Part shown: positions 983 through 4,583 of the stretch, piece by piece | How positions within the stretch are numbered: position 1 is the first letter of the stretch | How the letters are laid out: every line of letters starts with the position of its first letter | NCBI GenBank assembly: GCA_945860375.1 | Contig: CAMAQR010000102.1 | Span: 1-7,829 of the forward strand | DNA: 7,829 nucleotides | From: Pseudorhodobacter antarcticus | GTDB lineage: Bacteria; Pseudomonadota; Alphaproteobacteria; Rhodobacterales; Rhodobacteraceae | Direction: 5' to 3' | Notes under the pieces: model-generated | Seen by the model: only the letters and a program-made list of their open reading frames with translations | Databases searched by the model: none | Told to the model about the DNA's origin: nothing | Position numbers and translations under genes: made by a program

Positions 983-2365
983 TCAAAAAGCCATGGTCAC
1001 ACCCAGCCGCAGTGTGCTTGATCGGTACTGCTGCGAGCCGTTGGTGAATGAGTAATAAAGATGACCTATCGTGCCTTGTTGGCCCTGATAATCCAAGCCG
1101 ATCCCCAACGAAACCTGTTCCCTGGGGACGCCTTGAATGACAAGGGTGGTGTCGCTTTCACCAGAAGTCGCATCAACGTAGCGCATCGTTTGCTGCAGGT
1201 CACCCTCACTGCGGTGGGTGTACTTCCATGTCAGCGATGGCCTGAGGGCGCCCGTCGCAACGGGAATATCCGTGAACACCTCTATGCCGACCGATGCCGC
1301 CGTCGATTGGTTGCTGGCGCTGTCGTATTGCACTGCCAGCGCAGGGCCAGATTCGGTGAATGCCTCCAGTGTAGTCTGGCTCAAATTAAGGGTCAGGTTG
1401 GGCACAAAGCTTACTCTAGCAGTCTGAAATGCCTTACTGACCTGGATGCCCGCGAAGGCGATATGGCCTCTTCGATTGGCCTCAAACAAGAGATCTGAAT
1501 ACCGAGAGTTACGAAAGTCGATGTCGCCATAGCCGATTGCGCCATCAATCAGCAGCTGGTCTTCCGAGGCGTGATGCAGATAAAGCACGGTTGTTTTTTG
1601 GGTTGAGGTCACCCCAGAGCCCTGCGCATCTGTGTCGGTGTGATCGCTTCCGTAACCTATGGCTGCCCCTAACAGCCAGTATGCGCTGAACTGCTTCTCA
1701 ACGCCAATGGTAAGGCCCCGCGCCTGAAAGCTGCTGTCATGGCCATCGGCATTGTTAGTGCCGTTGGCGATGACCCCGGTGACCCAGAGCTCTACCTGTT
1801 GACCGTTGCTGGCGGCAGCGCCGTCTTTGGAGAGCGTATTGAGCCGGCCCCAAACATGATCAAGCTGCGCCTCAGTCAAACGATATGCAGCAGACATCTG
1901 CGCCACGAGTTGGCTCCTAATAGAGGGATCGTCTGCGATGCCTCCGACCAAGCGAACAAACAGGCGCAGCGTCGACTCTCTTTCGATGCTGTAATCGCTC
2001 AGCGTGTGGCCATCTTCTAACTGCGTGCCCGCAAAAATAAGCCGCTGCCGATCCGGCGGGATGCCCTCTTTATCTTGAATTTTTTGCTTAACGTTATCGA
2101 TTGTGTCAGAGGGTTCAACTTCCAGCGTGATGGTTTTGCCGGTCAGGGTCTTGACGAATATCTGCATGGCTTGGGTCGCCGTGGACATCATGGTGAGGCT
2201 CAAGAGAAGAATGAGTTGACCTAATTTCTTTGCCCAAGAGCCCCGTGTCAATGCATGGGACGGTTCCGCAAGGTGATTGGCGGTGGATCGAAAGGTCACC
2301 CCCCCAACTGAGGAGCTGATTTCCAGAGCGGGATTTGCATCTTCGTTGGGGCGAGATGTTTTCAT
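983..2365 (-). CDS. Exported ubiquitin-autotransporter beta-barrel fusion (copy A)
   Basis: The protein is 460 aa from the ATG at 2365. That start has a GGGGG Shine-Dalgarno-like tract 8 nt upstream; an in-frame TTG at 2416 would add 17 residues and looks weaker. Residues 1-66 are a long export leader ending in a basic stretch (WAKKLGQ, 44-50), a hydrophobic core and the cleavage-like TQA. Residues 67-142 are ubiquitin, opening [20 protein letters not shown]. It differs from human ubiquitin at 12 of 76 positions (E24D, A28Q, Q40R, K48T, R54H, N60S, Q62E, K63R, H68R, V70F, L71V, R74V) and ends RLVGG. Residues 143-180 form a likely helix ([20 protein letters not shown]) and about 190-460 are alternating amphipathic beta strands ending LRLGVTMAF, with the terminal Phe typical of BAM-inserted barrels. 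By family knowledge the barrel should sit in the outer membrane and expose or tether ubiquitin at the surface. Its biological role is unknown. It is paired head to head with copy B and is followed at 4 nt by the SET-like gene. Confidence 0.9.
1940..2167 (-). other. Ubiquitin domain of copy A (76 codons, Gly-Gly retained)
   Basis: The 76 codons reproduce ubiquitin without gaps from Met1 to Gly76. Lys6, Lys11, Lys27, Lys29 and Lys33 are kept; Lys48 is Thr and Lys63 is Arg, so the two best-known chain-linkage lysines are lost. Leu8 and Ile44 are kept, but His68 and Val70 of the recognition patch are Arg and Phe. The tail is V71-R72-L73-V74-G75-G76 instead of LRLRGG. Isoleucine follows Gly76, as in a linear ubiquitin fusion. 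Whether any deubiquitinase could cut there cannot be told from the sequence. Confidence 0.97.
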
Positions 2366-2373
2366 GCTTGAAA

Positions 2374-2378
2374 CCCCC
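2374..2378 (-). promoter_or_regulatory. Ribosome binding site deciding the start of copy A
   Basis: On the minus strand GGGGG lies 8 nt before ATG 2365. This is the best support for the ATG over the in-frame TTG at 2416. In addition, the paralogous leader of copy B aligns with copy A from about this ATG onward. Confidence 0.55.
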
Positions 2379-2651
2379 AGAAAATTAGCATTTTGCACGA
2401 CTTTTAACTGAGGCAAAGGTATTCAGGGTCAAGTAGCGGGCGAGTTGGGCAGTGGCAAGCTTTGCATGGTGTATACGTGCGGGTTTTTGGGCCAATTGCA
2501 ATGAACAGCCGTAACCTATGCCCATAGATACTCGTTTAAACTAAAGTTACCCTGATTTTCAAAGGCTGGCGGTTGAACCCCTAAGAAATCAAGTTACCCT
2601 AAACGTATCGACGCGGTCCTTAAGCTTCGCCGTTAAAACTCTTTTGGAGAA
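2379..2651. promoter_or_regulatory. Divergent intergenic promoter region between the two ubiquitin-barrel genes
   Basis: This stretch of about 270 bp must hold promoters for both divergent genes. It is visibly more A+T-rich than the flanking genes. It contains two direct copies of AAGTTACCCT (2544-2553 and 2591-2600), an 8-bp palindrome ATTGCAAT at 2495-2502 and GTATAC at 2471-2476. A TTGACC at 2427-2432 (minus strand) with TTAAAA at 2402-2407 would be a -35/-10 pair for copy A, but the 19-bp spacing is long. TTGAAC at 2573-2578 is a possible -35 for copy B without a convincing -10. The promoter role follows from gene arrangement; no individual element is established. Confidence 0.45.
2544..2600 (+). 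repeat. Pair of 10-bp direct repeats (AAGTTACCCT) in the divergent promoter region
   Basis: The same 10-mer occurs at 2544-2553 and 2591-2600, with starts 47 bp apart, which is about 4.5 helical turns. The location 50-110 bp upstream of copy B would suit binding sites for a regulator. No regulator gene is in the window and no known operator is recognised. Confidence 0.5.
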
Positions 2652-4583
2652 ATGGTGGTTTATCTCTTCAAGCTTTTGCAAGGCCAGTTGCGCGGCATCC
2701 GGCCTTCGAGGTGGCTGCACCGCTCGGGGTGGCAAGACGCTGTGGCCTGCTTGCAAAGGTCATCTCGTCTCAACACAGCAGCGAACTCCGTTCTAGACAT
2801 TAGCTCTTCGGCTGGGGGGCTTACTTTTCGATCCACGGCCGAATGCCGTGTGGCACAACCCCCTAGGTTTACGCAGCGCGCATGGTCAAAGAAATTAGGC
2901 CAGATTATTCTTGTTTTAAGCCTCACCATGATGTCGACGGCGAGCCATGCCATGCAGATATTCATCAAAACCCTGACCGGAAAAACCATCACGCTGGACG
3001 TTGAACCCTCTGACACAATCGAAAACGTCAAACAAAAAGTGCAAGACAAAGAGGGCATTCCCCCAGATCAGCAGCGGCTTATTTTTGCGGGGAAGCAACT
3101 GGAAGATGGTCGCACGCTGAGTGATTATAACATTCAAAAAGAGTCGACGCTGCACCTGGTGCTTCGCTTGAGGGACACAACCGCGCCCACCGTAACCAGT
3201 GTCTCCGCTTCAACTGCAAACGGCACTTACAAGGCTGGCGAACTGATCAGCGTCCAAGTGACCTTTAGCGAGGCGGTCACAGCAGTCACAACCGACGGCA
3301 CACCTTCATTGACCTTAGAAACAGGGACGACCGATCGGGCGATCAGCTATGTTTCCGGAAGCGAAACCACAGTCCTTACATTTCTTTACACCGTTCAGTC
3401 TGGCGACAACTCCGCCGACCTTGACTATCTCAGCACCGCCGCGCTTGCGCTTAACTTGGGCACGATCAAGGACGCTGCAGGCAATGACGCTACTTTAACG
3501 TTGCCCACACCCGGTGGTTCGGGGTCACTGGGCGCCAACAAAGCCTTGGTCATCGATACGGGAAACTCAACCACAGAGTTTAATGCCAAGACGGGATCGA
3601 TACATCATGTGCTAACCGACGACGCCTCCCGTGGCCTAACCAGCGCCCTATCGGCCAACCAAGCCGTGGTGCAAAACGCCAAGGAACGGTTCGTTGCAAG
3701 CCCGGGTCAGAATGTGGCGCTGGATATGGCGGGCAGTCTTGATGCCAATCCGGTCACTGTCAGCTCTATGGGCACGTTCGTTGGTCAATCGATCCAAAGC
3801 AATGGCCAAAGGCAATGGTTGTTCGGCAGCTTTGATCTGCAGCGCGGTGATACCAGTGGCGCGTCATCCACCACGTTCAGCGGTAAGATCGGGTGGGAGC
3901 GGATGGTTTCTGACACCACGATGTTGGGCTATTTCATTGGCAGCGATCTGGCGCGGTCTGACATCGCGGGCAGTTTTTCCGGTGATCAGGTTCATCTAGG
4001 CGTCACGGCGGGCGGCTATGCGGTGCATGAGATGGCAAAGCAGGTTTATTTGGAAAGTTTTGTGTCTGTTGGCGCAGGGCGTAACACCCTGTCCATGGCA
4101 GACAGCGTTCTGGTGCTGGAAAGTGATTACACCACCCGCTCGGCCACATTCGGCGCTTCGGTCAGTGGTGTGATTGCGCAAAAGGGCTATGAAATCTGGC
4201 CAGAGTTGGCCCTAACCTTGGGCCGCACGTGGATTGATACCGTTGGTTTCGCTGGCACGGCCTACGGTGCGACCGACAACGGCCTTAGCCTTGACGCGGG
4301 CATGGTGACACTGGCGAACCTCACCTTCCGCCCCGAATTCCGTGTGCCTTTGGATGGGATGGATCTGGCGCAAAGCCAGCGCCTGATCACCCTTTCCCCA
4401 CGTCTGATCTGCCAGCAGTCGAGAGCCACCACCACAGCCCAAACCTGTGGTGGCGGGGCTGAGATTGGCCTGCAAACCCACGCTGAGGATGGGATGACCA
4501 CCACCTCAGGTCAAATCCAGACAGACTGGATTGACGGGCATACCCGCACCAGCGGCCAGCTGGGGATAGAGATGCGGTTTTAA
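2652..4583 (+). CDS. Exported ubiquitin - Ig-like repeat - autotransporter beta-barrel fusion (copy B)
   Basis: The protein is 643 aa from ATG 2652. A GGAG at 2646-2649 is only 2 nt from this ATG but 5 nt from the in-frame GTG at 2655. A TTG at 2751 would match the start of copy A, so the true start is uncertain. Residues 1-100 are an export leader with basic WSKKLGQ (78-84), a hydrophobic core and the cleavage-like SHA. Residues 101-176 are ubiquitin with V5I, E16D, A28Q, I30V, and Gly75-Gly76 replaced by Asp-Thr. Residues 177-303 resemble the Ig-like repeat of bacterial surface proteins ([32 protein letters not shown]). A probably helical linker follows (about 315-350), then a beta-barrel (about 370-643) ending QLGIEMRF. 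The barrel should anchor the protein in the outer membrane. The copy A leader and ubiquitin are clearly paralogous; the barrels are not obviously so. Function is not known. Confidence 0.9.
2952..3179 (+). other. Ubiquitin domain of copy B (all lysines retained, Gly-Gly lost)
   Basis: The 76 codons align gap-free to ubiquitin with 70 identities to the human protein. All seven lysines (6, 11, 27, 29, 33, 48, 63) and the Leu8/Ile44/His68/Val70 patch are intact, and the tail reads LRLR followed by Asp-Thr. Without Gly75-Gly76 it could not be activated by an E1 or be cut by normal deubiquitinases, but it could still be recognised by ubiquitin-binding domains or act as an acceptor. A28Q is shared with copy A, and many codons are identical between the copies, so the two come from one ancestor. 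Confidence 0.97.

What the first reader, a model, noticed from the sequence alone, without database searches (positions are those of the whole stretch)
983..4583. Two divergent genes export eukaryotic-type ubiquitin fused to outer-membrane beta-barrels
The sequence directly shows two bacterial genes with an export leader, a gap-free ubiquitin (about 84% and 92% identical to human by hand count) and a C-terminal barrel ending in Phe. True ubiquitin is very rare in bacteria; a secreted ubiquitin is known in Bacteroides fragilis, but I know of no description of a ubiquitin-autotransporter pair. A surface ubiquitin would be well placed to meet eukaryotic hosts, grazers or their secreted enzymes.
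Basis: partly seen in the sequence, partly recalled or inferred. Interest (0 to 1): 0.96.

Follow-up and report, generated by a model that had tools for sequence, protein, structure and literature searches.

The report
Ubiquitin worn on bacterial cell surface
Two neighbouring bacterial genes each join near-human ubiquitin, the protein tag of eukaryotic cells, to a likely export signal and a predicted outer-membrane barrel, so the cell would likely wear ubiquitin on its outside, where it might engage amoebae, other hosts or rival microbes.

The parts
983..2365 (-). Gene A: 460-aa ubiquitin-autotransporter
   Evidence: PF00240 + PF03797; start shared with relatives; structure
2168..2365 (-). Gene A leader, 66 aa; hydrophobic core, then ..STATQA before ubiquitin Met1
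   Evidence: inspection; -1 is Ala in 39 of 40 sequences that have residues before ubiquitin; no signal-peptide predictor was available
1940..2167 (-). Gene A ubiquitin, residues 1-76; ends VRLVGG; R68, F70, T48, R63
   Evidence: 64 of 76 as in human
1838..1927 (-). Predicted pore helix of gene A, residues 147-176
   Evidence: region aligned to NalP
986..1795 (-). Gene A barrel, residues 191-460, last residue Phe
2366..2651 (.). Intergenic region between the divergent genes
   Evidence: no sigma-70-like site found in 2300-2800
2652..4583 (+). Gene B: 643-aa ubiquitin-barrel protein
   Evidence: relatives P0154-P0156
2652..2951 (+). Gene B leader, 100 aa, ending ..STASHA before ubiquitin Met1 (a later start is possible)
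   Evidence: first part conserved as protein in P0154 and P0156
2952..3179 (+). Gene B ubiquitin, residues 1-76; ends LRLRDT; L8, I44, H68, V70, K48, K63 kept
   Evidence: 70 of 76 as in human
3174..3494 (+). Ig-like spacer (Big_5/Big_12, below cut-off), absent from P0154-P0156
3564..4580 (+). Gene B barrel region, last residue Phe
   Evidence: homology to proteins with PF03797; gene B was not modelled
1949..2358 (-). 410-bp cassette shared with gene B (leader + ubiquitin to Leu73)
   Evidence: 80% identity, no gaps
2761..3170 (+). 410-bp cassette shared with gene A
1..978 (-). Gene C, cut by the window end; predicted SETD3/SETD6/LSMT-like fold; 4 bp after gene A, likely same operon
   Evidence: no Pfam or NCBIfam hit

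Best explanation
Genes A and B each encode a near-human ubiquitin behind a likely signal peptide and ahead of a predicted autotransporter barrel, and the ubiquitin is likely carried through the outer membrane and left tethered on the cell surface as a non-conjugatable decoy that would bind the ubiquitin-handling proteins of eukaryotic grazers or hosts. Shown: the ubiquitin sequences, their place directly after an A-x-A-type site, the barrel family of gene A, the recurrence of the fusion, and the conservation pattern. Predicted: signal-peptide cleavage that leaves ubiquitin Met1 as the mature N-terminus, a barrel with a pore helix as in NalP, and surface exposure. Inferred: that recognition by eukaryotic deubiquitinases, ubiquitin-binding domains or ligases is what holds the sequence so close to human. 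The altered tail would let such proteins bind the tethered ubiquitin without activating or conjugating it and, in most members, without cutting it off. The cassette has been moved between barrels in this locus, and gene B has an extra spacer, which suggests that the barrel is an exchangeable stalk and the ubiquitin the selected part.
Against: No surface, binding or phenotype data. Gene A's own ubiquitin has R68 and F70 in place of H68 and V70, so its classical binding face is altered, and it keeps Gly75-Gly76 (RLVGG), which a deubiquitinase might still cut. One relative (L083) has drifted to 39 of 72 and starts with Phe, not Met. Conservation could also reflect a bacterial target. Only one of five AlphaFold models of gene A was confident (mean pLDDT 76.6; the others 39.5-55.2). 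The leader was judged by eye and conservation only.
Confidence: 0.45

Rival explanations
1. Contact-dependent antibacterial weapon: the tethered ubiquitin would bind and poison a target in competing bacteria, as free secreted BfUbb does among Bacteroides fragilis strains.
For: BfUbb has the same leader design (cleavage exactly before Met1), lacks the terminal Gly and kills bacteria (PMC5705921, abstract, passages and discussion). 40 of 43 sequences here lack Gly-Gly at 75-76.
Against: BfUbb is 63% identical to human ubiquitin (PMC3352274, abstract start in the listing), whereas 42 of 43 passengers here are 58-71 of 72 as in human, more than a bacterial target alone would seem to demand. No immunity gene was recognised in the window; gene C resembles SETD proteins.
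Confidence: 0.25
2. Structural cap: ubiquitin is a small, cysteine-free, fast-folding module that helps pull the chain out and shields the pore, with no ubiquitin-specific partner.
For: No Cys within ubiquitin residues 1-72 in any of 43 sequences; in L083 a diverged version sits on the same barrel type as in L077.
Against: A fold-only role would let the surface drift; instead ubiquitin changes far less than the barrel.
Confidence: 0.17
3. Released ubiquitin: the passenger is cut in the variable tail and acts as free extracellular ubiquitin.
For: Gene A, P0077 and L082 keep Gly-Gly at 75-76; many autotransporters release passengers (established knowledge).
Against: No conserved cleavage motif was seen: the tail is among the least conserved segments (median pair identity 0.40); gene B has DT in place of GG.
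Confidence: 0.1
4. Assembly chimera or eukaryotic contamination.
For: The window is not in a held genome.
Against: Same fusion in 33 clusters with 167 member sequences, 44 members for gene B-type fusions, and like fusions inside 1.4-Mb and 3.9-Mb contigs of alphaproteobacterial genomes.
Confidence: 0.01

Closest known systems
BfUbb, the secreted ubiquitin of Bacteroides fragilis (PMC3352274, PMC5705921)
   Same: Eukaryotic-type ubiquitin in a bacterium; leader ends exactly before Met1; no C-terminal Gly-Gly in BfUbb and none in gene B
   Different: BfUbb is free, 63% identical to human and has a C-terminal Cys; here the ubiquitin is fused to a barrel, closer to human, and has no Cys; gene A keeps Gly-Gly
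Type Va autotransporters (NalP, EstA, EspP)
   Same: Leader, N-terminal passenger, predicted pore helix, PF03797 barrel, C-terminal Phe (gene A)
   Different: The passenger is ubiquitin; no ubiquitin-bearing autotransporter was seen in the listings of the paper searches
Ubiquitin-like proteins with signal peptides in the sponge symbiont 'Ca. Luteria ianthellae' (PMC10947273, passages)
   Same: Alphaproteobacterium with exported ubiquitin-like proteins, read by its authors as host-directed
   Different: Architecture not described in the passages seen; sequences not compared here
SETD3/SETD6/Rubisco LSMT proteins (gene C only)
   Different: No Pfam hit, 11% identity, rmsd 5.4; activity unknown

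Membership tests
Ubiquitin (PF00240) | Profile match above the curated cut-off | tested here: met
   A 96 bits, B 107.7 bits, cut-off 25.4
Ubiquitin (PF00240) | Ubiquitin fold | tested here: met
Ubiquitin (PF00240) | C-terminal RLRGG for conjugation | tested here: not met
   0 of 43; A has RLVGG, B has RLRDT; so this is a ubiquitin domain, not a canonical conjugatable modifier
Ubiquitin (PF00240) | E1/E2/E3 enzymes in the same genome | not tested
   No genome is held for the window
Type Va autotransporter | PF03797 barrel with pore helix | tested here: met
   Gene A:
Type Va autotransporter | The same for gene B | tested here: inconclusive
   No own Pfam hit; some relatives carry PF03797; not modelled
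Type Va autotransporter | Sec-type leader with A-x-A-type site | tested here: met
   By inspection; -1 Ala in 39 of 40 sequences with a leader; no predictor was available
Type Va autotransporter | C-terminal aromatic residue | tested here: met
   Phe in 40 of 43; two of the three others are truncated clusters (P0151, P0152) and L078 ends in Ile
Type Va autotransporter | Passenger exposed at the surface | not testable with these tools
   -
BfUbb-type secreted ubiquitin | Leader ends exactly before Met1 | tested here: met
   By sequence; cleavage itself not tested
BfUbb-type secreted ubiquitin | Free, unfused ubiquitin | tested here: not met
   Fused to barrels
BfUbb-type secreted ubiquitin | C-terminal Cys | tested here: not met
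   No Cys in gene A; none in gene B's ubiquitin
SETD/LSMT methyltransferase (gene C) | SET plus LSMT-type C-terminal fold | tested here: inconclusive
SETD/LSMT methyltransferase (gene C) | Catalytic activity | not testable with these tools
   -

The most novel reading that the evidence does not exclude
Bacteria of at least three phyla have separately built a tethered-ubiquitin surface organ: a human-like ubiquitin that starts exactly at the signal-peptidase cut, keeps its recognition surface, loses its conjugation tail, and is anchored by whatever local device exists (several kinds of autotransporter barrel, PEP-CTERM tail, type IX secretion tail), to seize or blind the ubiquitin machinery of protists and hosts; in this locus a co-transcribed SETD-like enzyme would modify the ubiquitin or its targets.
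Probability: 0.3. Interest if true: 0.95.

Novelty: new variant of a known kind. Interest (0 to 1): 0.86.

Why it matters
Bacterial ubiquitin is known mainly as a secreted protein of one gut species. A family that likely displays it on the outer membrane, kept near-human over its body but not in its conjugation tail, would be a clean case of molecular mimicry outside known pathogens and would make the question of what extracellular ubiquitin does for a bacterium directly testable. It also offers natural ubiquitin display scaffolds.

Tried and rejected
Search with the whole of gene A was flooded by polyubiquitins (one relative, P0077, among 120 listed); the barrel-only search gave the family. 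The genome-contig scan with gene B gave 75 loci, none with a match to the whole protein: mostly ubiquitin alone or the Ig-like part. Plasmids: only weak barrel-level matches among the 20 of 48 records listed; phages: none; viral contigs: one short ubiquitin-like ORF, L076. Gene B's barrel: 0 of 385 alphaproteobacterial genomes at E 1e-15, without a positive control. Gene C: 1 of 385 genomes, three copies; that genome has no match to gene A at E 1e-12. Phylum sample: 0 of 124 with ubiquitin, 2 with a barrel match only. Orders of G202 and G325: 0 of 9 and 0 of 96 (no positive control within them). Promoter scan: nothing. Contamination or chimera rejected. Canonical conjugatable ubiquitin rejected. 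Free BfUbb-like secretion rejected for the anatomy, not for the function. A PEP-CTERM end of L098, seen by eye, was not confirmed by Pfam.

Left out of counts: P0151 and P0152 (fragments) and P0153 (no ubiquitin) are not in alignment A1, so 31 of 33 ubiquitin-bearing clusters plus gene A were aligned; all 33 are in the 43-sequence count, which also holds genes A and B, P0154-P0156 and L077, L078, L081-L083. Three of the 43 (P0130, P0132, P0134) start at ubiquitin Met1 without a leader and are left out of the leader count. One search lists 120 of 190 proteins; 3 of those 120 carry ubiquitin. In some searches only the candidates sharing most words were scored.

Full report
OBSERVATION. Gene A (983-2365, minus) and gene B (2652-4583, plus) are divergent reading frames.

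RECURRENCE. Of 34 protein clusters that match the gene A barrel, 33 (167 member sequences) carry ubiquitin in front of it (only the candidates sharing most words were scored). Of the 120 best relatives listed (of 190) for gene B's barrel, only 3 (44 members) carry ubiquitin; others have Ig-like, Fn3 or unrelated passengers. In whole genomes the fusion is rare. It was found in 2 of 289 alphaproteobacteria, then in 4 of 25 genomes of one order. In the second order 1 of 2 genomes has it, the one already found. It was found in 0 of 9 and 0 of 96 genomes of two further orders, and in 0 of 124 of a phylum sample. These five genomes use other barrels. L077, L081, L082 and L083 have PF03797, in L077 only distantly related to gene A's barrel (25% over 144 residues). 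L078 is recognised only by NCBIfam's autotransporter model and shows no barrel similarity to L077. Three of the four in one order lie at the same chromosomal place, beside (names by eye from the sequence) an amidohydrolase, an ABC transporter ATPase and a DNA polymerase I gene, so the gene is inherited there and not a passing contaminant.

EXPORT DESIGN. Of the 43 sequences, 40 have residues before ubiquitin; the residue before it is Ala in 39 and Ser in 1, and position -3 is Ala (24), Thr (9), Ser (6) or Val (1). Cleavage would leave ubiquitin Met1 as the N-terminus (Phe in L083). No predictor of signal peptides was available. The leader of the gene A family is long (66 residues), with a conserved stretch upstream of the hydrophobic core.

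WHAT SELECTION KEEPS. In the 32-sequence alignment the median pair identity is 0.89 for ubiquitin residues 1-72, 0.60 for the barrel, 0.44 for the leader and 0.40 for the tail; ubiquitin exceeds barrel in 494 of 496 pairs. Among 43 sequences, L8 is kept in 40, I44 in 36, H68 in 36, V70 in 37, K48 in 38 and K63 in 41. RLRGG occurs in none, and Gly-Gly at 75-76 in 3 (gene A, P0077, L082). So the body of ubiquitin is guarded and its conjugation tail is not. Against this reading, gene A itself has R68, F70, T48 and R63, while gene B keeps the canonical face and has no Gly-Gly: the two genes may differ in role. Pairwise dN/dS between the A and B ubiquitins is 0.089/0.453 (72 codons).

CASSETTE. DNA similarity between A and B is limited to 410 bp at 80% without gaps, from just inside the leader to the codon of ubiquitin Leu73. 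The barrels show no protein similarity in a pairwise BLASTP either. One ubiquitin cassette has thus been set on two barrels. In this window gene B also has an Ig-like spacer that P0154-P0156 lack.

OTHER ANCHORS. Exported ubiquitin without a barrel occurs in a Pirellulales MAG contig (L010: pentapeptide repeats and a PEP-CTERM tail above the Pfam cut-off, just under the NCBIfam ones) and in a Marinilabiliaceae MAG contig (L014: type IX secretion tail above both cut-offs). MAG binning was not checked beyond a look at neighbouring frames. A diverged ubiquitin-like relative (L098) was found in another genome of the Pirellulales order. Of the 149 genomes searched in the order of L014, only its own genome was hit by ubiquitin; in the order of L010, its own and L098's of 146 (which covers the loci kept).

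MECHANISM. The best-supported chain is: Sec export, barrel insertion, passage of the ubiquitin to the outside, and display at the end of the pore helix. What it meets is inferred. Near-human sequence over old, diverged barrels points to eukaryotic ubiquitin-handling proteins, and the tail makes it a binder that likely cannot be conjugated and mostly cannot be cut. BfUbb shows that an exported ubiquitin can instead serve against bacteria (PMC5705921: abstract, passages and discussion) and can also block human ubiquitination in vitro, binding E1 covalently, by its authors' hypothesis through a C-terminal Cys that is absent here (PMC3352274: passages). A later report of a bacterial target of BfUbb is recalled, not seen (one search did not list it).

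NOVELTY. Seven paper searches (open-licence PMC only) listed no description of a ubiquitin autotransporter. This was judged from titles and abstract starts; one search listed 25 of 213 papers and one search listed 10 of 13. The parts are known kinds; the combination, its spread and its conservation pattern are new to what was searched.

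Noticed in passing
window 1-978 (-): Gene C, likely co-transcribed with gene A, has a predicted SETD3/SETD6/LSMT-like fold without any Pfam hit; three distant copies sit in one alphaproteobacterial genome (L087, L088).
   Followed up: partly
window about 4690-4927: Remnant similar to plasmid DNA annotated in part as IS5 family transposase, between gene B and the xanthine-dehydrogenase-type genes; hints that the ubiquitin pair arrived by a mobile element.
   Followed up: partly
window 4962-7358 and 7355-7819 (-): Molybdopterin and 2Fe-2S subunits of a xanthine-dehydrogenase-type enzyme; ordinary neighbours.
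   Followed up: no
L010:6027-6746: Pirellulales MAG: leader, ubiquitin, pentapeptide repeats, PEP-CTERM tail.
   Followed up: partly
L014:7986-8537: Marinilabiliaceae MAG: leader, ubiquitin, type IX secretion sorting tail.
   Followed up: partly
L098:538-1344: Genome of the Pirellulales order: diverged ubiquitin domain (PF00240, 2.7e-13) behind a likely leader; a PEP-CTERM-like end seen by eye has no Pfam hit.
   Followed up: partly
L019, L020, L024, L028, L032, L043, L055: MAG contigs, five of seven titled Actinomycetota, Actinobacteria or Microthrixaceae in the plain sense (L024 is titled Bifidobacterium breve): ubiquitin, in L024, L028, L032 and L043 in two ORFs in a row, followed by other modules (often TGVVTY), with no visible leader.
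   Followed up: no
L083:163-1923: Barrel like that of L077 and L081 at the same locus, but with ubiquitin drifted to 39 of 72 residues: a natural contrast for constraint.
   Followed up: partly
L076:6758-6997: Viral contig with a short ubiquitin-like ORF, 44% identical to ubiquitin.
   Followed up: no
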